A stretch of DNA of 9,605 nucleotides, taken from contig JAOUNC010000069.1 in assembly GCA_029881175.1 (NCBI GenBank), forward strand, positions 1 through 9,605. Reading direction: 5' to 3'. Shown one piece after another: positions 1,797 through 9,605 of this stretch. Made by a program: the position numbers and the translations under genes. The notes below the pieces were generated by a model, which was not told the origin of the DNA, did no database searches, and worked only from the letters and a program-made list of their open reading frames with translations. The DNA comes from Nitrospirota bacterium (GTDB lineage Bacteria; Nitrospirota; Nitrospiria; Nitrospirales; UBA8639). Numbering within the stretch: the first letter of the stretch is position 1; every line of letters begins with the position of its first letter.

Positions 1797-1991
1797 ATGA
1801 AAATCCATCTCAGCCACCCTACCCGTGACATCGAACTCCAGGGGCCCAAACGTGTTGTGGACATCTTCAAGGAACTCCAATTGATTCCCGAAGCTTTTTT
1901 GATCATTCGCGGACAGGACCTCATGACAGAAGACGAAATCGTGGCGGACGGGGATAGTATTGAAGTCCGTCCCGTCATTTCCGGAGGGTAG
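1797..1991 (+). CDS. ThiS/MoaD-like sulfur carrier protein (TtuB-like)
   Basis: A 64-residue ubiquitin-fold type protein ending in Ile-Ser-Gly-Gly. A C-terminal Gly-Gly is the mark of sulfur carriers (ThiS, MoaD, TtuB), which an E1-like enzyme adenylates and which then hold sulfur as a thiocarboxylate. The final part, with acidic residues followed by GDSIEVRPVISGG, matches the usual end of the fold. It lies 3 nt before a TtuA-family tRNA thiolase, so the likely role is to donate sulfur for 2-thiouridine in tRNA, as TtuB does for TtuA in Thermus. No Shine-Dalgarno precedes ATG 1797; the mRNA may start almost at the ATG. ThiS or MoaD function cannot be excluded from sequence alone, but the neighbour argues against it. 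No activating E1 gene is in view. Confidence 0.85.
   Translation: MKIHLSHPTRDIELQGPKRVVDIFKELQLIPEAFLIIRGQDLMTEDEIVADGDSIEVRPVISGG
1983..1988 (+). promoter_or_regulatory. Ribosome binding site of ttuA embedded in the Gly-Gly codons of the carrier
   Basis: The last two sense codons of the carrier gene, GGA GGG, encode the functional C-terminal Gly-Gly. They also form a strong Shine-Dalgarno sequence 6 nt before the ATG at 1995. The stop codon TAG (1989-1991) lies between, so ribosomes finishing the carrier are placed to start on ttuA. Confidence 0.8.
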
Positions 1992-1994
1992 CCC

Positions 1995-2933
1995 ATGAAA
2001 TGTCGAAAATGTCCTCAACGGGCGGTCTTGGGCATGCCTCGCCACAATACGGCATTCTGCGGACCCTGCTTGACTGAATTTGTCCGAAACCAAGTCCAAA
2101 AAGCTATCAAAGCGCAGGCAATGTTTTCCCCGAATGACCGCATTCTTGTCGCGGTCTCTGGCGGAAAAGATAGCGTAACCCTCTGGGAAATTCTGCTCAA
2201 ACTCGGCTATCGGGCCGATGCCCTCTATGTGGATTTAGGCATAGCAGGGTATTCGGAACGTTCTCACGAAAAAGTGGAGCGTTTTGCTCGTGATGTCGCC
2301 GAATCCTGTGGGTCAAAGCTTATCGTTCATACCGTGGAAGAGGACGCCGGAGCGGGCATTAAAGAATTGGCAACTCTCGTCAAACGGCCCACCTGCTCCA
2401 CCTGTGGCACCATTAAACGGTACCAATTCAATCGCGTAGCCTGGGAGAATAAGTACGATGTCATGGCCACGGGTCATAATCTGGATGATGAAGCCGCCCG
2501 GCTGCTCGGCAATGTGCTGCAATGGCAGGAAGAATATCTCCAAAAACAATCTCCGACCCTGCCTGCGTCCGTAGAAGGATTCGCCAAAAAGGTCAAACCG
2601 CTCTATCGCATGACCGAACGTGAAATTGCCGCCTATGCTGTCGTGAACCGGATTGATTACTTGGTGGAAGAATGCCCCATGGCCAAGGGCGCGAAAATGC
2701 TGGTCTATAAAGATGCGCTCAATAGACTGGAAATGGAATCGCCCGGTACGAAACACCGCTTTTATTATGGATTCTTAGAAAAACAAAAGAACGCCGCTGA
2801 CTCATCCAATCACTCCATGACCGATAGCGATCAAGCCACGCTCCTCCCCTGTGAAACCTGCGGCCAACCCACCACCGCCGGCACCTGCTCATTCTGCCGC
2901 ATGATGGCCCGCGCGAAGAGTCCCACTCGCTAG
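1995..2933 (+). CDS. ttuA: TtuA/Ncs6-family tRNA 2-thiolation enzyme
   Basis: A 312-residue PP-loop ATPase that activates a tRNA uridine (position 54 in TtuA, position 34 in Ncs6) by adenylation and replaces O2 with sulfur. In order: an N-terminal zinc finger (C3, C6, C22, C25); the ATP-binding P-loop SGGKDS (55-60); a C134-x-x-C137 pair plus C227, the three cysteines that hold the 4Fe-4S cluster in characterised TtuA; GHNLDDEA (160-167), typical of this family; and a C-terminal zinc finger (C286, C289, C298, C301). All expected cysteines are present, so the enzyme looks intact. A linker of about 20 residues rich in Ser, Asn and Asp (268-284) precedes the last finger. It is translationally coupled to the sulfur-carrier gene 3 nt upstream, which supports the TtuA/TtuB assignment. 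Whether the target is U54 or U34 cannot be decided here. Confidence 0.9.
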   Translation: MKCRKCPQRAVLGMPRHNTAFCGPCLTEFVRNQVQKAIKAQAMFSPNDRILVAVSGGKDSVTLWEILLKLGYRADALYVDLGIAGYSERSHEKVERFARDVAESCGSKLIVHTVEEDAGAGIKELATLVKRPTCSTCGTIKRYQFNRVAWENKYDVMATGHNLDDEAARLLGNVLQWQEEYLQKQSPTLPASVEGFAKKVKPLYRMTEREIAAYAVVNRIDYLVEECPMAKGAKMLVYKDALNRLEMESPGTKHRFYYGFLEKQKNAADSSNHSMTDSDQATLLPCETCGQPTTAGTCSFCRMMARAKSPTR

Positions 2934-3046: not shown

Positions 3047-4801
3047 TCACTCTTCGCGATAAAAGCGGATGCTCACTTTCTTGCCCTTAATCCTGGTCCG
3101 TCCCAGCGCCTTCATGATGCCCTGAGCCATTTCTTCTGGCACTTTCACCAACGAGAATTGATCCGATATTTTGATGGGGCCGATCATATTCGAATTGATT
3201 CCGGCCTCGTTGGCAATAGCGCCAACAAAATCGCCAGGACGGATGCCTGCCAATTTGCCGACGTTGAAATGCAAGGTGGCCAGGTTTGTGGGTCGGCCAG
3301 GGCGCTCCCGCTTACCAACTGGTCGGCCCGCCCCGCCTCTTGGATGTGCGCCGCGCGGAAGATCAGGAGCCTCTCGTCTGGGGCGTCGTGGCGTCTGAGA
3401 GGATTCCTGGACACGGTCCCGTATAGCCGGAATGTTTTCTTCGGTTCGCTCCCCCTCTTTCGATCCATAGGCCAATTGCATGGCAGCCGCCGCTACCTCG
3501 ACTGCATCAAATTTTTCGGTGAGGGTATTGACGATATCCCGGAAACGATCAAAGTTCTTAGTTTTCAGGATGTCCTGAATGGAAGCTGCGATCCTTTCCA
3601 GTCGCTTGGCTTCGAGGTCGGCCACTGTCGGAAGTGTGGCCATCTCAATTTTTGATTTTGTGAGCCGCTCGATGTTCTGTAACAACCAGCGTTCGCGCGG
3701 TTCGACAAGCGTGATCGCTTCACCGGCCCGGCCGGCGCGGCCGGTCCGACCGATACGATGAACATAGGCCTCAGGTGACGACGGAACATCGTAATTCATC
3801 ACATGCGAGACATGTGAGATATCCAAACCTCGTGCGGCAACATCCGTGGCGACCAGCAACTCGGTCTTTCCTGCCCGGAAGGAGTCCATCACACGATCCC
3901 GTTGAGCCTGATTCATGCCTCCATGTAGACCTTCCCCTCGGTACCCCCGGCTATTGAGCCTGGACGTCAACTCATCCACTTCCAGACGAGTGCGGCAGAA
4001 CACCAATGTCGACTTCGGGCTGGCCATATCCAGGATACGGATCAGGGCCGAAACCTTGTGTGGCCTTGCGACAAGGTATCCAATCTGGTGCACGCGAGGG
4101 GCCACTCCTGCTTTAACCGGCTCCTTCGCAATCTGAATCTCAACAGGGTCCTGTAAATGACGGCGTGCGATTGCTGCAATGCGAGAGGGCATCGTCGCCG
4201 AAAAGAGTGCCGTCTGCCTGGTTTTGGGAGTCTGTTGAAGGATGGCATCCAGATCTTCGGCGAACCCCATATTGAGCATTTCATCCGCTTCATCCAGCAC
4301 CACAACTTGCAGATCCTTGAGCTGAAGGGTCTTGCGGCGGATATGATCCAACGCCCGCCCTGGGGTCGCCACGACAATATCAACGCCACGTTTTAGCGCG
4401 ATCAGTTGTGGTCGTATGGCCTGTCCGCCATACACCGCAAGGATAGCGACCCGCTGCTCTTTCCCATAGCGCTGAACGGCCTCGCACACTTGCATCGCTA
4501 ATTCCCGTGTAGGCACGAGAATGAGGACGGAAGGATGTTCCTGTCGAGACGAATGGGCCAGGCGCTGGAGAAGGGGCAAGGTGAACGCAGCCGTTTTACC
4601 TGTTCCTGTGGCAGCGCGACCCAGGAGGTCGCGTCCGGCCAATAGCGGTGGAATCGCCTCGAGTTGGATAGGCGTAGGCTCTTCGTATCCCAACGTCTCA
4701 AGCGTCGTCAACAATGCTGCTTCGAGGCCGAGAGATGCGAAACCGGGGGAAAAGCCCTTCATGGTCGGAGTTGTAGGTTGGGGTGTCGTATCGTGTTTCA
4801 T
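3047..4801 (-). CDS. deaD: DEAD-box ATP-dependent RNA helicase, DeaD/CsdA type
   Basis: A 584-residue cytoplasmic RNA helicase of the kind that unwinds structured RNA in ribosome assembly and cold adaptation. Motifs in order: the Q motif around F21 to Q46; motif I ATGTGKT (64-70); PTREL (97-101); TPGR (146-149); DEAD (170-173); SAT (201-203); LVFCRTR (about 265-271); ATDVAARGLD (about 315-325); and HRIGRTGRAG (about 346-355). After the two RecA domains come a helical dimerisation-like part and a basic Arg/Pro/Gly-rich linker (about 460-505). The last 80 residues match the DbpA RNA-binding domain (VGKLAGIRPGDFVGAI near its start). Length and order fit DeaD. The ATG at 4801 has only a weak purine stretch upstream; an internal ATG at residue 14 has none. 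The gene converges on ttuA with 113 bp between, where I found no clear terminator. Confidence 0.95.
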   Translation of the reverse strand: MKHDTTPQPTTPTMKGFSPGFASLGLEAALLTTLETLGYEEPTPIQLEAIPPLLAGRDLLGRAATGTGKTAAFTLPLLQRLAHSSRQEHPSVLILVPTRELAMQVCEAVQRYGKEQRVAILAVYGGQAIRPQLIALKRGVDIVVATPGRALDHIRRKTLQLKDLQVVVLDEADEMLNMGFAEDLDAILQQTPKTRQTALFSATMPSRIAAIARRHLQDPVEIQIAKEPVKAGVAPRVHQIGYLVARPHKVSALIRILDMASPKSTLVFCRTRLEVDELTSRLNSRGYRGEGLHGGMNQAQRDRVMDSFRAGKTELLVATDVAARGLDISHVSHVMNYDVPSSPEAYVHRIGRTGRAGRAGEAITLVEPRERWLLQNIERLTKSKIEMATLPTVADLEAKRLERIAASIQDILKTKNFDRFRDIVNTLTEKFDAVEVAAAAMQLAYGSKEGERTEENIPAIRDRVQESSQTPRRPRREAPDLPRGAHPRGGAGRPVGKRERPGRPTNLATLHFNVGKLAGIRPGDFVGAIANEAGINSNMIGPIKISDQFSLVKVPEEMAQGIMKALGRTRIKGKKVSIRFYREE

Positions 4802-5653: not shown

Positions 5654-6085
5654 TTAATCGGGGAGTTCGATGCCCCCGCCTTCGAGGTCGGTGTCAATGC
5701 CGGTGAGCTCCATTTTATTGCCAACACGCCACCATTCAGCGGACACTTCGGAAAGTGCCCCCTTGGAGGTATAAAACTTTGCGGTGGGAATGCTCACCGT
5801 ATGATTTTCCGCTTTATGGATCTCCATCACCGTGGTTTTCAGCGTCGTATCCTCAACCTTGAGTGTTTCAGGCGTGCTTGTCAGCACAAATCGATCATTA
5901 GGATTCGTTTCCCATACATTGTGTTTTAACGTGGCCACCTCTGTTCCTGTCGGCATAAATACACCCATGGATAGTGCCAATTTCTTTTCTTCTTCCAGCC
6001 ATTCAATCCGAACCTGTTCTTTGCCATGCGCCAAAAACGTTCCATTCGTATTTCGTAGGGTGTTGGTGCCTAATTGAATATCCAC
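5654..6085 (-). CDS. Unrecognised 143-residue protein
   Basis: I do not recognise a family. The start is GTG 6085, chosen for the strong AGGAGGAG ribosome site 6 nt before it. The protein has no signal peptide and no membrane segment. It is rich in Thr, Glu and Lys and has alternating hydrophobic/polar stretches throughout (for example VRIEWL, KLALSMGVF, RFVLTSTPETLKVEDT), which suggests a mostly beta-strand soluble fold. There is a single WW (118-119), no cysteine, and an acidic C-terminus with a Gly-Gly-Gly. It stands alone, with its own candidate promoter and a hairpin downstream, 139 bp after the phosphonate-type operon. Whether it depends on that operon is unknown. The strong ribosome site and intact frame indicate a real gene. 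Confidence 0.75.
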   Translation of the reverse strand: MDIQLGTNTLRNTNGTFLAHGKEQVRIEWLEEEKKLALSMGVFMPTGTEVATLKHNVWETNPNDRFVLTSTPETLKVEDTTLKTTVMEIHKAENHTVSIPTAKFYTSKGALSEVSAEWWRVGNKMELTGIDTDLEGGGIELPD

Positions 6086-6224: not shown

Positions 6225-7223
6225 CTACATAGGTGATATGGGTTCAGGTGCAGCAGGGAGATCCTTGCCTTTCAACAACATGAGGCAACCCAAGCCAATG
6301 ACAATCCAAAGAATTTCCCGCAATCGCCGGATCAGCGCAAAGGTTATGCCTGTCACTTCTGTATATCCGAAACTCATGAGCAACAAGGTATAGCCACCTT
6401 CTTGCGCCCCTACACTCCCGGGAATAAAAAATGTGCCGCCTTTGATGAAGACCGTGAGCGCCGCAATTGAGATGGATGTCCAGACATCAACATGCACATC
6501 CAGGTAATACAAAATCGCATAGACTTCTAACGTTTCGCAAAACCAGGCCAGAAAAAACGTGCCCACGGCCACATAAAACGTAGGACGGTTTTCAGAATAA
6601 AACCCTCGAATCGTGGCATCCATTTCTTCTAATTGCGTTTCTCGTTTTTCAAGAAAGGCTAATCGAACTCCGCATGTTCGCAACAGGGTCAAACAGCCCA
6701 TACCCAGCCCATAGCGTTGAAACATCACAAACAGGCCCACCCCAAATGCCAGGAGCCCCAGACTCACGAACATCGCTATCCAGTAGTGGCTTGCAGCCTC
6801 CATGATCCAAAACGCCAGACCCAACCCGAGCAAAATAAACAGCACTTGCGCCAACGTCATCGTCGTCTTGGCCGTAATGACGGAGGCCATCCCCTCGACC
6901 ATTGGCACCCCATACCGCTTGAGGAGGTAGGCTTTCAGGGGTTCGCCACCCACATACGCCGCTGGCGTGGTGACATTCACCGTCTCACCCGCCATCCGGA
7001 TGGCAAACAGCCGCAGAAACCCAACGTCCTTAGCATAGGCCCCGAGCGTGAGGCGCCAACCCCATGCCTCAAGCCCATACACGACTATCATAGGGAGCAA
7101 AATAACGATGAGCGGAAGAGGTCCGAGTTGGGAGACTGCGTGAAGAATCGGTTCGAGACCGATATGCAAAACGATTCCGATCAGGGCAAGAAGCCCAATG
7201 ATCAGAAACAGGAGTTTAAACAC
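6225..7223 (-). CDS. Flippase-like integral membrane protein (LPG_synthase_TM / UPF0104 family)
   Basis: A 332-residue multi-pass inner-membrane protein of the family that includes the membrane half of lysyl-phosphatidylglycerol synthase and the hopanoid-associated HpnL. Hydrophobic segments lie at about 4-22, 36-54, 113-140, 147-168, 215-240, 250-267, 278-296 and 303-317. Family marks are GETVNVTTPAAYVGGEPLKA (79-98), with E80 and E94 in the membrane region, PGSVGAQEGG (268-277), and RRLREILW (299-306). The N-terminal segment fits the family from residue 1. The start is GTG 7223, which lies inside the end of the preceding gene (8-bp overlap) and has no strong ribosome site, so translation is probably coupled. 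Proteins of this family are thought to move or present lipids. The neighbouring lipid-head transferase suggests it handles that product, which is inference. Confidence 0.85.
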   Translation of the reverse strand: MFKLLFLIIGLLALIGIVLHIGLEPILHAVSQLGPLPLIVILLPMIVVYGLEAWGWRLTLGAYAKDVGFLRLFAIRMAGETVNVTTPAAYVGGEPLKAYLLKRYGVPMVEGMASVITAKTTMTLAQVLFILLGLGLAFWIMEAASHYWIAMFVSLGLLAFGVGLFVMFQRYGLGMGCLTLLRTCGVRLAFLEKRETQLEEMDATIRGFYSENRPTFYVAVGTFFLAWFCETLEVYAILYYLDVHVDVWTSISIAALTVFIKGGTFFIPGSVGAQEGGYTLLLMSFGYTEVTGITFALIRRLREILWIVIGLGCLMLLKGKDLPAAPEPISPM

Positions 7224-8697
7224 GGGAAATGAGATTTCGACGGAGGAGCCAAGTCAACGACATCACAAAGAACCACGACCCGATGGCGGCTAAAGCGAGA
7301 AACCAATGTAACATTCCCAACCCTGCACAGATCAGGACCACCACAGAAAAATCTCGATTGGCCACGTTGCCCAGCATAAACTCGATTTTTTGGCGTTCAC
7401 GTGCCGTCAACAAGCGTAAATCACGTGGTCGTGAACGCACCTGGCGAGCCACATTGACCAATAACAACGACACGATATTGGCTAGCACCGCTGATGCGCC
7501 CATCACCAATGGCAGTTGTGTCTGCTCCCATGGTCCCTGGAGATAGGCTCCGCAGGCCATTCCGGCAAAGATAGCGATATGCACGACGTTGTCTGCCCAA
7601 ATGTCCAACTCCTGCCCAAACTTAGATTCGGAAAACGTCAGCCTGGCCACTTCGCCATCGCAACAATCAATGATCACTGACAATTGAAAGAGCAGCGCCC
7701 CAATCAGCGCATATTCCCATGAGCCGGGAACAAAGAACCCTGCTGCGAGTAATCCCACCACCATGGAGATGATCGTGATCGTATTTGGTGACCATTGTAG
7801 CTTCAAAAATAGTCGCGTGAGCAAACCAGAGCACTTTCGGTTCACATAGCGATCAACCAATCCGTCCATCCCGCCTTTCAACGTCTGAAGAGAACGGACC
7901 AATGTTTGTTCTGCCAGCTTCGGCCCCTGGGGACCACGGACATCTCGAAACCAATGCGTCTCACCTGAAATAGTTTGGACCGTGCCTTCGACCGCAGCCT
8001 GTTCCAAGGCTAACCGTAAGGGGTTCGTCCCATGGGCATGCAACACACCCGATACGCCTAATAACCGGCCTGGCAATACCATGAGATCCCCGACGATGTG
8101 TAGCCCTGACCCATCAGGGCTCTTAACCGGAGGAGCGGCTTCCATAAGGGGCAACACGGCAGGATCTCGAAACATCACAGAGGGCGCCGGCCGACCTTCA
8201 AAACCTACCCTCACCACGACACTCGGATTCTCCCAATGATAGCCGTCTTCCTGCTGACCAACGACGACAACCGCTTTGCCTTGTGCACCTTCATATCGTA
8301 ATCGCTGGACCAGTGATGAAGAAAACACGGTATGACAGCCCACCACCATACAGGCGCCATTGACTTCATCGGCCAAGGTCTCCCAGGTTTCGGGGTCATG
8401 AGGTGGAAATTCACGAACAGGCAACCAGCGAACCGCAGCCTGAAGCCGACTATCTTCTCGCAACAAATCTCGCAAGGCCGGCTCTTCTTTCCCGGCTAAG
8501 ACCCAAATTTGAGATATGCCGCCTCGCTGCAAGGTGAACACGGCCCGTTGAAACAACGTCATCCCGCCAACACGGGTTAATGGACTTGGTAGGGCCTCCA
8601 CGGAATCTCCGCTCCCTGACGCGAACACCCCGGCGGAGGTGAGGAGAATGGCCGTATCAACGGCATCTGTCGTTTCTTGTTTGAGAATTCCATCCAT
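7216..8697 (-). CDS. CDP-alcohol phosphatidyltransferase fused to a degenerate nucleotidyltransferase domain
   Basis: A 493-residue two-domain protein. The C-terminal part (about 280-493) is a membrane CDP-alcohol phosphatidyltransferase: the metal and substrate motif is complete (D344, D347-G348, A351-R352, G361, D365, D369) and hydrophobic segments surround it. It also carries the pre-motif DGLVDRYVNR (278-287) and SPN (303-305). The N-terminal part (about 14-270) resembles sugar-phosphate nucleotidyltransferases. The layout recalls the bifunctional inositol-phosphate cytidylyltransferase/di-inositol-phosphate phosphate synthase. The expected catalytic residues are not there: the Gly-rich loop is SAGVFASGSGDS, the usual PK is PS (37-38), the metal Asp is C121 (GCH), and the second Asp near DVD is R254 (DVR). 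The domain is probably inactive and may bind or scaffold. It starts at ATG 8697, 24 nt after the cytidylyltransferase gene. The likely reaction is CMP-AEP (or CDP-X) plus an alcohol giving the head-grouped lipid or polyol. Confidence 0.85.
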   Translation of the reverse strand: MDGILKQETTDAVDTAILLTSAGVFASGSGDSVEALPSPLTRVGGMTLFQRAVFTLQRGGISQIWVLAGKEEPALRDLLREDSRLQAAVRWLPVREFPPHDPETWETLADEVNGACMVVGCHTVFSSSLVQRLRYEGAQGKAVVVVGQQEDGYHWENPSVVVRVGFEGRPAPSVMFRDPAVLPLMEAAPPVKSPDGSGLHIVGDLMVLPGRLLGVSGVLHAHGTNPLRLALEQAAVEGTVQTISGETHWFRDVRGPQGPKLAEQTLVRSLQTLKGGMDGLVDRYVNRKCSGLLTRLFLKLQWSPNTITIISMVVGLLAAGFFVPGSWEYALIGALLFQLSVIIDCCDGEVARLTFSESKFGQELDIWADNVVHIAIFAGMACGAYLQGPWEQTQLPLVMGASAVLANIVSLLLVNVARQVRSRPRDLRLLTARERQKIEFMLGNVANRDFSVVVLICAGLGMLHWFLALAAIGSWFFVMSLTWLLRRNLISRV

Positions 8698-8721
8698 AAT
8701 GATTACGCCTCAATTAGACGA

Positions 8722-9483
8722 CTATGGAGTCACGGAAACGCCTACAGGAGTCTGCTGCATGGCTTCTATGGCTGGCAAGATCTGTGAAGTCGCTCGCTGA
8801 ATATCTTCAGGAAAATCAATTTCAATCCAGGGTAAGCCTCCAATTTTTTCATACCCAACGGGGACATCCTGGAAAAACGTCGCGAGCGCATCCTCATATT
8901 CCATATCGAGCTGGCCATCTTCAATAAAGGTTTGGACGGAAGCAAGCAACGAAGGGATATCCGATTGTTGAACCTTCAAAAACCCTACACCCTCTCCGGC
9001 TTCCTGGTAATGTGCTGGCAGTCTCTTGCTCAACGACAGCACCCGGCCGTCTTGTGCCGCAATCATGCATTCTTCAGATTCCTGCTTCACCGTCTCATCC
9101 ATGAGCAACGCTGAAGATTGTGAAGACCGCACTAAGCGTGTCAAAATTTCCGGGGCATACAAGACATCCGCATCCATGAGCACGACATCATCATCCATTT
9201 CGTGTCGAGCAGCCCATAACGAGGTGATACTTCCCCGAACAAACTGATCATTTTCCACCCATCGTATATCTACGGTGGAAGAGTCAGCGGCCATGGCCTC
9301 ACGTATCGCATCTTGGGCAAACCCCACCACCAACACAATAGGAGACACACCTAATTGATGTAAACATTCGACATGTCGAGACAACAAGGTTTGCCCACCA
9401 ATTTGTACCAGACATTTGGGCTTCCCTTGCGTAACCGCCTGAAGGCGTTTGCCAACCCCCGCCGCAAAAATGATGGCTTTCAT
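8722..9483 (-). CDS. pntC: PntC/LicC-like cytidylyltransferase, probably making CMP-2-aminoethylphosphonate
   Basis: A 253-residue soluble nucleotidyltransferase with an intact active site: AAGVGKRL (7-14), K21-P-K23-C-L, EN(D) at 77-79, SITSLW (85-90), the metal-binding D104-A-D106, GEGVGFLK (163-170), DMEYEDAL (193-200), and WIEIDFPEDI (219-228) holding the second Asp, D223. These are marks of the LicC/PntC group, which joins CTP to phosphocholine or 2-aminoethylphosphonate. The preceding gene looks like an AEP transaminase, and the ATG at 9483 overlaps its stop (ATGA), so AEP is the likely substrate. CMP-AEP would then feed the transferase encoded 24 nt downstream. GGAG about 11 nt upstream is a modest ribosome site. 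Alternatives are phosphocholine or a sugar phosphate. The family call is firm; the substrate is inferred from context. Confidence 0.8.
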   Translation of the reverse strand: MKAIIFAAGVGKRLQAVTQGKPKCLVQIGGQTLLSRHVECLHQLGVSPIVLVVGFAQDAIREAMAADSSTVDIRWVENDQFVRGSITSLWAARHEMDDDVVLMDADVLYAPEILTRLVRSSQSSALLMDETVKQESEECMIAAQDGRVLSLSKRLPAHYQEAGEGVGFLKVQQSDIPSLLASVQTFIEDGQLDMEYEDALATFFQDVPVGYEKIGGLPWIEIDFPEDIQRATSQILPAIEAMQQTPVGVSVTP

Positions 9484-9605
9484 CCTCGAGATTTCTCCAG
9501 CGTTGACTGAAAGGCCGATAAAAATCCTTCAATATTCTGATTGGTCAGCGCCCCGATATTAGCCACGCGAAAAATTTTGTCCTCGAGTTGGGCTTGCCCG
9601 GCATA
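9480..9605 (-). CDS. phnW: Class-V aminotransferase C-terminus, probably 2-aminoethylphosphonate-pyruvate transaminase (partial)
   Basis: Only the last 41 codons are in the window, read from 9605 to the TGA at 9482-9480. The piece contains KIFRVANIGALTNQNIEGFL (10-29), which matches the FRIGNIG end-signature of AEP-pyruvate transaminases better than the RIGHMG form seen in alanine-glyoxylate/serine-pyruvate enzymes. A pyridoxal-phosphate enzyme of this kind interconverts phosphonoacetaldehyde and AEP with alanine/pyruvate. In a biosynthetic setting it would make AEP. The stop overlaps the next start by 4 bp, so the two are translationally coupled. The catalytic lysine and most of the protein are outside the window, so the call relies on a short piece plus context. 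Confidence 0.65.
   Translation of the reverse strand, partial: YAGQAQLEDKIFRVANIGALTNQNIEGFLSAFQSTLEKSRG

What the first reader, a model, noticed from the sequence alone, without database searches (positions are those of the whole stretch)
6225..9605. Tightly coupled cassette for a phosphonate-headed lipid or polyol
Four genes on one strand are joined by a 4-bp overlap, a 24-bp gap and an 8-bp overlap: an AEP-transaminase-like C-terminus, a PntC/LicC-type cytidylyltransferase, a CDP-alcohol phosphatidyltransferase and a flippase-like membrane protein. Known biology: PntC makes CMP-AEP, and CDP-alcohol transferases place head groups on alcohols. Inference: the cassette makes AEP, activates it, attaches it to a lipid or polyol, and moves the product. 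AEP lipids are not a standard feature of the group this window appears to come from.
Basis: partly seen in the sequence, partly recalled or inferred. Interest (0 to 1): 0.7.

Follow-up and report, generated by a model that had tools for sequence, protein, structure and literature searches.

The report
Nitrospirales phosphonate head-group transfer operon
Of 189 genomes searched in the order of the nitrite oxidiser Nitrospira, 171 carry both marker genes of a pathway predicted to make the rare carbon-phosphorus compound 2-aminoethylphosphonate, activate it, and attach it to an alcohol, possibly a membrane lipid.

Summary
The four coupled genes are real (9605-6225, minus strand; 4-bp overlap, 24-bp gap, 8-bp overlap). 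The window is a whole contig of a Nitrospirales draft genome, cut inside the aminotransferase. In relatives the operon starts further upstream: a split phosphonopyruvate/sulfopyruvate-type decarboxylase, a full PhnW-like transaminase, then the window's cytidylyltransferase, CDP-alcohol phosphotransferase and flippase (33 of 37 loci in that order). In 189 genomes of the order, phosphotransferase and PEP-mutase-family protein are both present in 171, both missing in 8, single in 10. So AEP made and CMP-activated is well supported; the acceptor is not known. The phosphotransferase has the six-helix AF2299/DIPP-synthase build, which speaks for a soluble acceptor; the flippase speaks for a lipid. 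The part list matches a published Nostoc/Burkholderia 'phosphonolipid' cluster. New here: near order-wide presence, and genomes that hold, in place of the canonical PEP mutase and never beside it, a divergent relative with a lyase-like loop (EDNVxPKRCS), often next to this operon.

The parts
9480..9605 (-). C-terminal 41 residues of the PhnW-like aminotransferase (gene cut by the contig end)
   Evidence: Sequence; 80% identical over 40 residues to a full-length relative, which is TIGR03301-like at 347.3 bits
8722..9483 (-). PntC/LicC-type cytidylyltransferase, 253 aa, predicted to make CMP-AEP
   Evidence: Pfam NTP_transf_3; best solved relative PntC-AEPT 6pd1 E 2.6e-17, then LicC 1.4e-11; G9, G11, R13, K23, D104, D106, E195, E197, D223 invariant in 51 of 51 distinct sequences (hits with a stop or under 90% coverage were dropped before that count)
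7216..8697 (-). CDP-alcohol phosphotransferase, 493 aa: degenerate nucleotidyltransferase-like domain (about 12-270) plus six-helix catalytic domain (about 280-490)
6225..7223 (-). Flippase-like membrane protein of the LPG_synthase_TM / HpnL kind, 332 aa
   Evidence: Pfam E 3.4e-36; TIGR03476 HpnL 151 bits, below its cut-off of 195.65; TIGR00374 flippase-like 83.6 bits, above its cut-off of 43.2
5654..6085 (-). 143-aa protein of unknown function, possibly a seventh gene of the operon in this family
   Evidence: Follows the flippase on the same strand in 11 of the 37 loci (10 with all six genes, and L008, which is cut); no confident Pfam match (best E 0.093)

Best explanation
The window holds the last four genes of an operon whose six-gene form is conserved across the order Nitrospirales and which is predicted to make 2-aminoethylphosphonate (AEP), activate it as CMP-AEP and transfer it to an alcohol, possibly a membrane lipid, that the flippase-like protein would then move across the membrane. 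Steps: (1) PEP to phosphonopyruvate by a PEP mutase encoded elsewhere in the same genome (gene shown; activity inferred from 65% identity to the enzyme of 1m1b and the diagnostic motif). (2) Decarboxylation to phosphonoacetaldehyde by a two-subunit thiamine-diphosphate enzyme (gene pair shown in relatives, beyond the contig end here; substrate inferred). (3) Transamination to AEP by the PhnW-like enzyme (tail shown here, whole gene in relatives). (4) CTP + AEP to CMP-AEP by the 253-aa PntC-type enzyme (catalytic residues shown; substrate inferred). (5) Transfer of the AEP group from CMP-AEP to an alcohol by the CDP-alcohol phosphotransferase, whose own nucleotidyltransferase-like domain has lost its catalytic motifs and probably serves as a structural part (signature shown; donor and acceptor inferred). 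I take a lipid acceptor as slightly more likely than a soluble one; it is the least certain step. (6) Translocation of the product (inferred from family only). The confidence given is for steps 1 to 5 with any alcohol as acceptor; for a lipid acceptor it would be about 0.35.
For: PEP mutase over cut-off in the own genome, fused to a nucleotidyltransferase. Co-occurrence in 189 genomes of the order: both the phosphotransferase and a PEP-mutase-family protein in 171, neither in 8, first only in 7, second only in 3; Fisher p 2.7e-8, not corrected for kinship; the 8 double absences fall in five genera. Linkage: in G014 the cytidylyltransferase, the PEP mutase fusion and a one-chain decarboxylase lie side by side on one strand; in 17 of 20 fetched regions (choice told under Tried and rejected) and in G039 a PEP-mutase-family fusion lies divergently beside the operon, about 0.75 to 4 kb away. 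No phosphonatase over cut-off in 40 genomes (no control was over it either), so the transaminase is not likely catabolic; ComA in 1 of 40 and not in the own genome, so a sulfopyruvate route is not supported; inositol-1-phosphate synthase in 0 of 20 genomes of the genus, so an inositol route is not supported. Glu196 of T. denticola PntC, placed near the amine of AEP (PMC6697681, section read), has Glu197 as its counterpart here, invariant in 51 of 51.
Against: The decarboxylase subunit searched for was not found in the own genome (no match in G000, 82% complete) and only 41 residues of the transaminase are seen. The second subunit scores slightly higher as sulfopyruvate decarboxylase beta (188.8 bits) than as phosphonopyruvate decarboxylase (174.4), neither over cut-off. 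Position 104 is Asp, as in LicC by my reading of the numbering, not Glu as in PntC. Lipid acceptor: six transmembrane helices only, while lipid-acceptor members of this family typically have three or four more, and AF2299 and AfDIPPS, the nearest folds, do not process lipids (PMC4634129). Two f4 genomes show no flippase in the operon. Phosphatidylserine decarboxylase is present in the own genome, so an AEP lipid would add to phosphatidylethanolamine rather than replace it. Seven genomes (87-95% complete) have the phosphotransferase without a PEP-mutase-family match, and three the reverse. In genomes with only the divergent PEP-mutase relative, step 1 rests on an enzyme of unproven activity.
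Confidence: 0.6

Rival explanations
1. Same pathway to CMP-AEP, but the acceptor is a soluble polyol or sugar, giving an AEP diester that works like an osmolyte or a surface precursor, as di-myo-inositol phosphate does.
For: Six-helix build and nearest folds AF2299 and AfIPCT-DIPPS; PMC4634129 states that the six-helix build appears conserved in members with soluble acceptors and that those two do not process lipids.
Against: A flippase-like gene follows the phosphotransferase in 34 of 37 loci; the published Nostoc/Burkholderia cluster with the same parts, hpnL included, is read as phosphonolipid (PMC5987646, passages), though without an assay in the passages I saw.
Confidence: 0.25
2. The cytidylyltransferase and phosphotransferase are a split version of the archaeal inositol-phosphate pair (IPCT-DIPPS) and have nothing to do with AEP.
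For: NF041135 IPPtranDIPPsyn is the best NCBIfam match of the phosphotransferase and the second best of the cytidylyltransferase, both far under cut-off (96.3 and 84.4 against 580); JGI names some relatives so.
Against: Inositol-1-phosphate synthase is in 0 of 20 genomes of the genus and 5 of 40 overall; the cytidylyltransferase is nearer PntC (2.6e-17) than IPCT (3.9e-10); transaminase and decarboxylase lie upstream in 36 of 37 loci, and in the last one (L008, a contig end) the transaminase alone.
Confidence: 0.06
3. The decarboxylase and transaminase make taurine-like sulfonates from sulfopyruvate, or another pair such as phosphoethanolamine from phosphohydroxypyruvate, and the head group is not a phosphonate.
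For: Split subunits as in ComDE and a slightly higher beta-subunit score as sulfopyruvate decarboxylase.
Against: ComA in 1 of 40 genomes; PEP-mutase-family proteins follow the operon across the order; a sulfonate has no phosphorus for a cytidylyltransferase to activate (established chemistry). The phosphoethanolamine route was not tested by any search.
Confidence: 0.07

Closest known systems
Phosphonate cluster of lichen Nostoc and Burkholderia (PMC5987646, Fig. 7 legend and passages)
   Same: CDP-alcohol phosphatidyltransferase, NTP transferase, pepM, ppd, AEP aminotransferase and hpnL; read there as phosphonolipid synthesis
   Different: Here the canonical pepM is not in the operon but elsewhere, fused to a second nucleotidyltransferase, or a divergent relative stands beside the operon; the decarboxylase is split in two. 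I did not compare the sequences of the two clusters.
PntC and PEP-mutase/nucleotidyltransferase fusions (PMC6697681)
   Same: PF12804 cytidylyltransferase beside AEP genes; PEP mutase fused to PF12804, reported there for 33% of PEP mutases
   Different: Two separate nucleotidyltransferases in one genome; the operon's one stands beside a CDP-alcohol phosphotransferase
Archaeoglobus AF2299 and IPCT-DIPPS
   Same: Nucleotidyltransferase-like domain fused to a six-helix CDP-alcohol phosphotransferase; complete catalytic signature
   Different: The fused domain lacks the GxGxR and PK motifs, and a cytidylyltransferase with them is encoded just upstream; inositol synthesis is missing in the genus
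HpnL / flippase-like LPG_synthase_TM family
   Same: Full-length family match
   Different: Below the HpnL cut-off (151 of 195.65 bits)

Membership tests
PEP-mutase-based phosphonate biosynthesis | PEP mutase with EDKxxxxxNS in the same genome | tested here: met
   G000:C420, 387.4 bits over cut-off, EDKQFPKTNS
PEP-mutase-based phosphonate biosynthesis | Phosphonopyruvate decarboxylase | tested here: inconclusive
   Two-subunit enzyme upstream in relatives, under cut-off for both phosphonopyruvate and sulfopyruvate models; not found in the own incomplete genome
PhnW/AEP transaminase | Full-length match to the AEP transaminase model | tested here: inconclusive
   Relative: 347.3 bits against cut-off 360.8, whole length, ahead of every other transaminase model; own gene cut to 41 residues
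PntC AEP cytidylyltransferase | Nucleotidyltransferase catalytic residues and the amine-contacting acidic pair | tested here: inconclusive
   Catalytic residues 51 of 51; Glu197 matches PntC Glu196, Asp104 matches LicC rather than PntC
PntC AEP cytidylyltransferase | Prefers AEP over phosphocholine | not testable with these tools
   Needs an assay
CDP-alcohol phosphotransferase | DxxDGxxAR...GxxxDxxxD with eight conserved residues and 6-10 helices | tested here: met
   47 of 47 distinct sequences; six helices in hydropathy and model
Lipid-acceptor CDP-alcohol phosphotransferases (PE/PC synthase type) | Three or four extra C-terminal helices (typical of the group, not strictly defining) | tested here: not met
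   Six helices only (rule from PMC4634129); so it is not filed as a member of this type
IPCT-DIPPS (di-myo-inositol phosphate) | Inositol-1-phosphate synthase in the genome | tested here: not met
   0 of 20 same-genus genomes, own included
Sulfopyruvate (ComA-E) pathway | ComA | tested here: not met
   Absent in the own genome; 1 of 40

The most novel reading that the evidence does not exclude
Nitrospirales as an order carry a phosphonate-headed membrane or surface component, and in up to 51 of 189 genomes the C-P bond is made by a second kind of PEP mutase whose active-site loop reads EDNV(F/Y)PKRCS, with a cysteine as in C-C lyases in place of the asparagine held to be diagnostic. The two kinds exclude each other and one has displaced the other beside this operon, so surveys that filter on EDKxxxxxNS would have missed much of Nitrospira, N. 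moscoviensis included.
Probability: 0.4. Interest if true: 0.78.

Novelty: new variant of a known kind. Interest (0 to 1): 0.6.

Why it matters
Nitrospira are main nitrite oxidisers and complete ammonia oxidisers in soil, water and treatment plants (recalled). If they put a C-P head group on lipids or surface molecules, they would be a steady phosphonate source there and have a surface that resists phosphatases. Three searches for Nitrospira with phosphonate terms listed 1, 5 and 1 papers; none shows phosphonate production by Nitrospira in its title or the start of its abstract. I read a passage of only one (PMC9239080: possible phosphonate uptake in archaea), and the library holds open-licence papers only. 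The question can be tested directly in cultured N. moscoviensis. The divergent PEP-mutase form also offers a test of which residues C-P bond formation truly needs.

Tried and rejected
Inositol pathway: rejected on missing inositol-1-phosphate synthase. Sulfopyruvate pathway: rejected on missing ComA (two controls ring, so the search works). AEP breakdown by PhnW plus phosphonatase: no match over cut-off in 40 genomes, best 58.6 bits against 220; weak matches ring in all 14 controls and none of these is over the cut-off, so this search had no positive control. AEP lipid in place of phosphatidylethanolamine: phosphatidylserine decarboxylase is present in the own genome (relatives not searched).

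Tree of the PEP-mutase domain (20 rows): the canonical rows form one group against the divergent ones (100/100) and sit with 1m1b PEP mutase (100/99); the divergent rows form one group (100/100), but their place against 5unc PEP mutase, phosphonopyruvate hydrolase and the single lyase outgroup is not settled; the outgroup branch is very long and the program warned of it. Closest solved relative of the divergent form is 5unc PEP mutase (290 bits, 51% identity), then the hydrolase (238 to 244), 1m1b PEP mutase (212 to 213), lyases at most 142. So whether it is a PEP mutase, a hydrolase or a lyase is open.

Choice of regions: 9 of the 20 were picked because coordinates already showed both genes on one contig; G189 was known to have them on different contigs; of the 10 taken blind, 8 had the divergent form beside the operon and 2 (G040, G051) showed no operon gene in the stretch, on contigs of 5.7 and 10.7 kb. 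Against the adjacency: of the nine divergent-form genomes first fetched, only G039 has it beside the operon, and in G023 the two lie about 2.5 Mb apart; G125 has them on different contigs; in G027 and G035 the phosphotransferase was not found. In L146 the phosphotransferase hit overlaps the cytidylyltransferase hit, so that locus is weak evidence for gene order. The 51 below-cut-off genomes include two with weaker matches (G069 9.5e-75, G080 6.3e-54), which I did not inspect.

Fold search rows other than CDP-alcohol phosphotransferases were single-domain matches, mostly to sugar nucleotidyltransferases; CEPT1-type enzymes were not among the rows shown, which is no evidence against them. Search for Nitrospira lipid papers: listing only, nothing used. 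PMC9381506: passages only, not relied on.
Full report
WHAT IS THERE. The window is the whole of contig C262 of a 3.07-Mb draft genome, 81.94% complete. Named relatives of the 493-aa protein are Nitrospirales and Nitrospiraceae genomes, among them UBA8639. Domains: NTP_transf_3, CDP-OH_P_transf, LPG_synthase_TM. The first gene is cut by the contig end; 41 residues are left.

BEYOND THE WINDOW. In relatives the operon begins with a thiamine-diphosphate enzyme in two genes (about 165 and 193 aa), followed by a transaminase of about 362 aa and the window's genes. The first subunit scores 132.2 bits as phosphonopyruvate and 113.1 as sulfopyruvate decarboxylase; the second 174.4 and 188.8; none reaches its cut-off (relative L010). 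The transaminase scores 347.3 bits for PhnW-AepZ over its whole length against a cut-off of 360.8, ahead of every other transaminase model. Thirty-three of 37 loci keep all six genes in order. In the own genome the second decarboxylase subunit was not found (the first was not searched there) and the transaminase only as its tail; the nearest genome carries residues 160-362.

PEP MUTASE. Searching TIGR02320 finds a PEP mutase over cut-off in 25 of 40 genomes, the own one included; no control genome is over the cut-off. The own protein is 571 aa: PEP mutase with EDKQFPKTNS, then an NTP_transf_3 domain; its mutase domain is 65% identical to the enzyme of 1m1b (Mytilus, recalled). All 25 over-cut-off loci read EDKxxxxxNS. 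It lies far from the operon: on another contig in the own genome, at 2.43 against 1.89 Mb in G018 and 0.34 against 4.50 Mb in G010.

TWO KINDS. Nine of the 40 genomes have instead a fusion that scores 239-285 bits, under the cut-off, and reads EDNV(F/Y)PKRCS; all nine were aligned and 20 more from the order were fetched: 29 of 29 have this loop. Over the order, 174 of 189 genomes have a PEP-mutase-family match at E 1e-50 or better; 123 hold one over the cut-off, 51 only one below it; G110 alone has two matches and both are over the cut-off, so no genome shows both kinds. I checked the loop in 28 of those 51. The divergent form lies divergently beside the operon in 17 of the 20 fetched regions and in G039 (how I chose them, and the cases against, are told under Tried and rejected). 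In G034 and G037, which have the canonical form elsewhere, degraded pieces of the divergent form lie at that same place beside the operon. The simplest reading is displacement of one by the other in the same role; that both make phosphonopyruvate is inference. One divergent-form genome is taken to be Nitrospira moscoviensis: P0158 bears that name with a longest contig of 4,589,485 bases, the length of the contig behind L140.

CO-OCCURRENCE. Phosphotransferase in 178 of 189, PEP-mutase family in 174 of 189, both in 171, neither in 8, first only in 7, second only in 3; Fisher p 2.7e-8 without correction for kinship. The set is genomes of the order at least 85% complete plus the own one. In the phylum sample (245 genomes) the phosphotransferase at E 1e-40 is in 84, all in this order; 17 listed genomes outside the order lack it, and 141 more without a match are not listed by name.

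CYTIDYLYLTRANSFERASE. Best solved relative PntC-AEPT, then LicC, then IPCT. In T. denticola PntC, Glu104 and Glu196 are placed near the amine of AEP and LicC has smaller Asp residues (PMC6697681: abstract, passages and sections 8 and 10 read). By the printed alignment the counterparts here are Asp104 and Glu197; both invariant in 51 of 51 distinct sequences. The residue evidence for AEP over phosphocholine is thus mixed; the neighbours decide it.

RIVALS TESTED. Inositol, sulfopyruvate and AEP breakdown (no positive control) each miss their marker gene. Psd is present.

VERDICT. As a kind it is known (phosphonyl tailoring with CMP activation; a published cluster with the same parts). What is new is the near-universal presence in Nitrospirales and the exchange of two PEP-mutase-family forms beside it. 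Organism names for 1m1b (Mytilus) and 5unc (Streptomyces) and general remarks on Nitrospira ecology are recalled.

Noticed in passing
L087:10840-12516, L140:2787-4463, L083:8830-10509 and 26 more: PEP-mutase-family/nucleotidyltransferase fusion with lyase-like loop EDNV(F/Y)PKRCS, never seen together with the canonical form in the order.
   Followed up: partly
L085:15512-16026 and L088:5681-5956: Degraded pieces of the divergent PEP-mutase fusion beside the operon in two genomes that have the canonical form elsewhere.
   Followed up: partly
L094:8706-9997, L092:3080-4458, L102:7572-8872, L101:7436-8413: In families f2 and f4 a squalene-hopene-cyclase-like toroid protein, in three of these four loci with a Rieske protein, lies between the cytidylyltransferase and the phosphotransferase; a possible clue to a terpenoid acceptor (Pfam run on L094 and L102 only; the other two by eye).
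   Followed up: partly
L089:1242-4816: In G014 (84% complete), where the phosphotransferase was not found, cytidylyltransferase, canonical PEP mutase fusion and a one-chain decarboxylase lie side by side.
   Followed up: partly
L107 (G110:C5:56062-56910): A second PEP mutase in G110 with loop EDKKGLKRNS in a 479-aa frame.
   Followed up: no
window 1797-2933 (+): A ThiS-like 64-aa protein (22.4 bits, cut-off 22.5) followed directly by a TtuA-like PP-loop enzyme, the pair expected for tRNA 2-thiolation.
   Followed up: no
window 3047-4801 (-): DEAD-box RNA helicase with DbpA and DeaD dimerisation domains.
   Followed up: no
L010:6276-6677 and the same place in nine other f1 loci: A QueF-like gene stands divergently before the first decarboxylase gene in 10 loci; NCBIfam QueF-II match tested on L010 only.
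   Followed up: no
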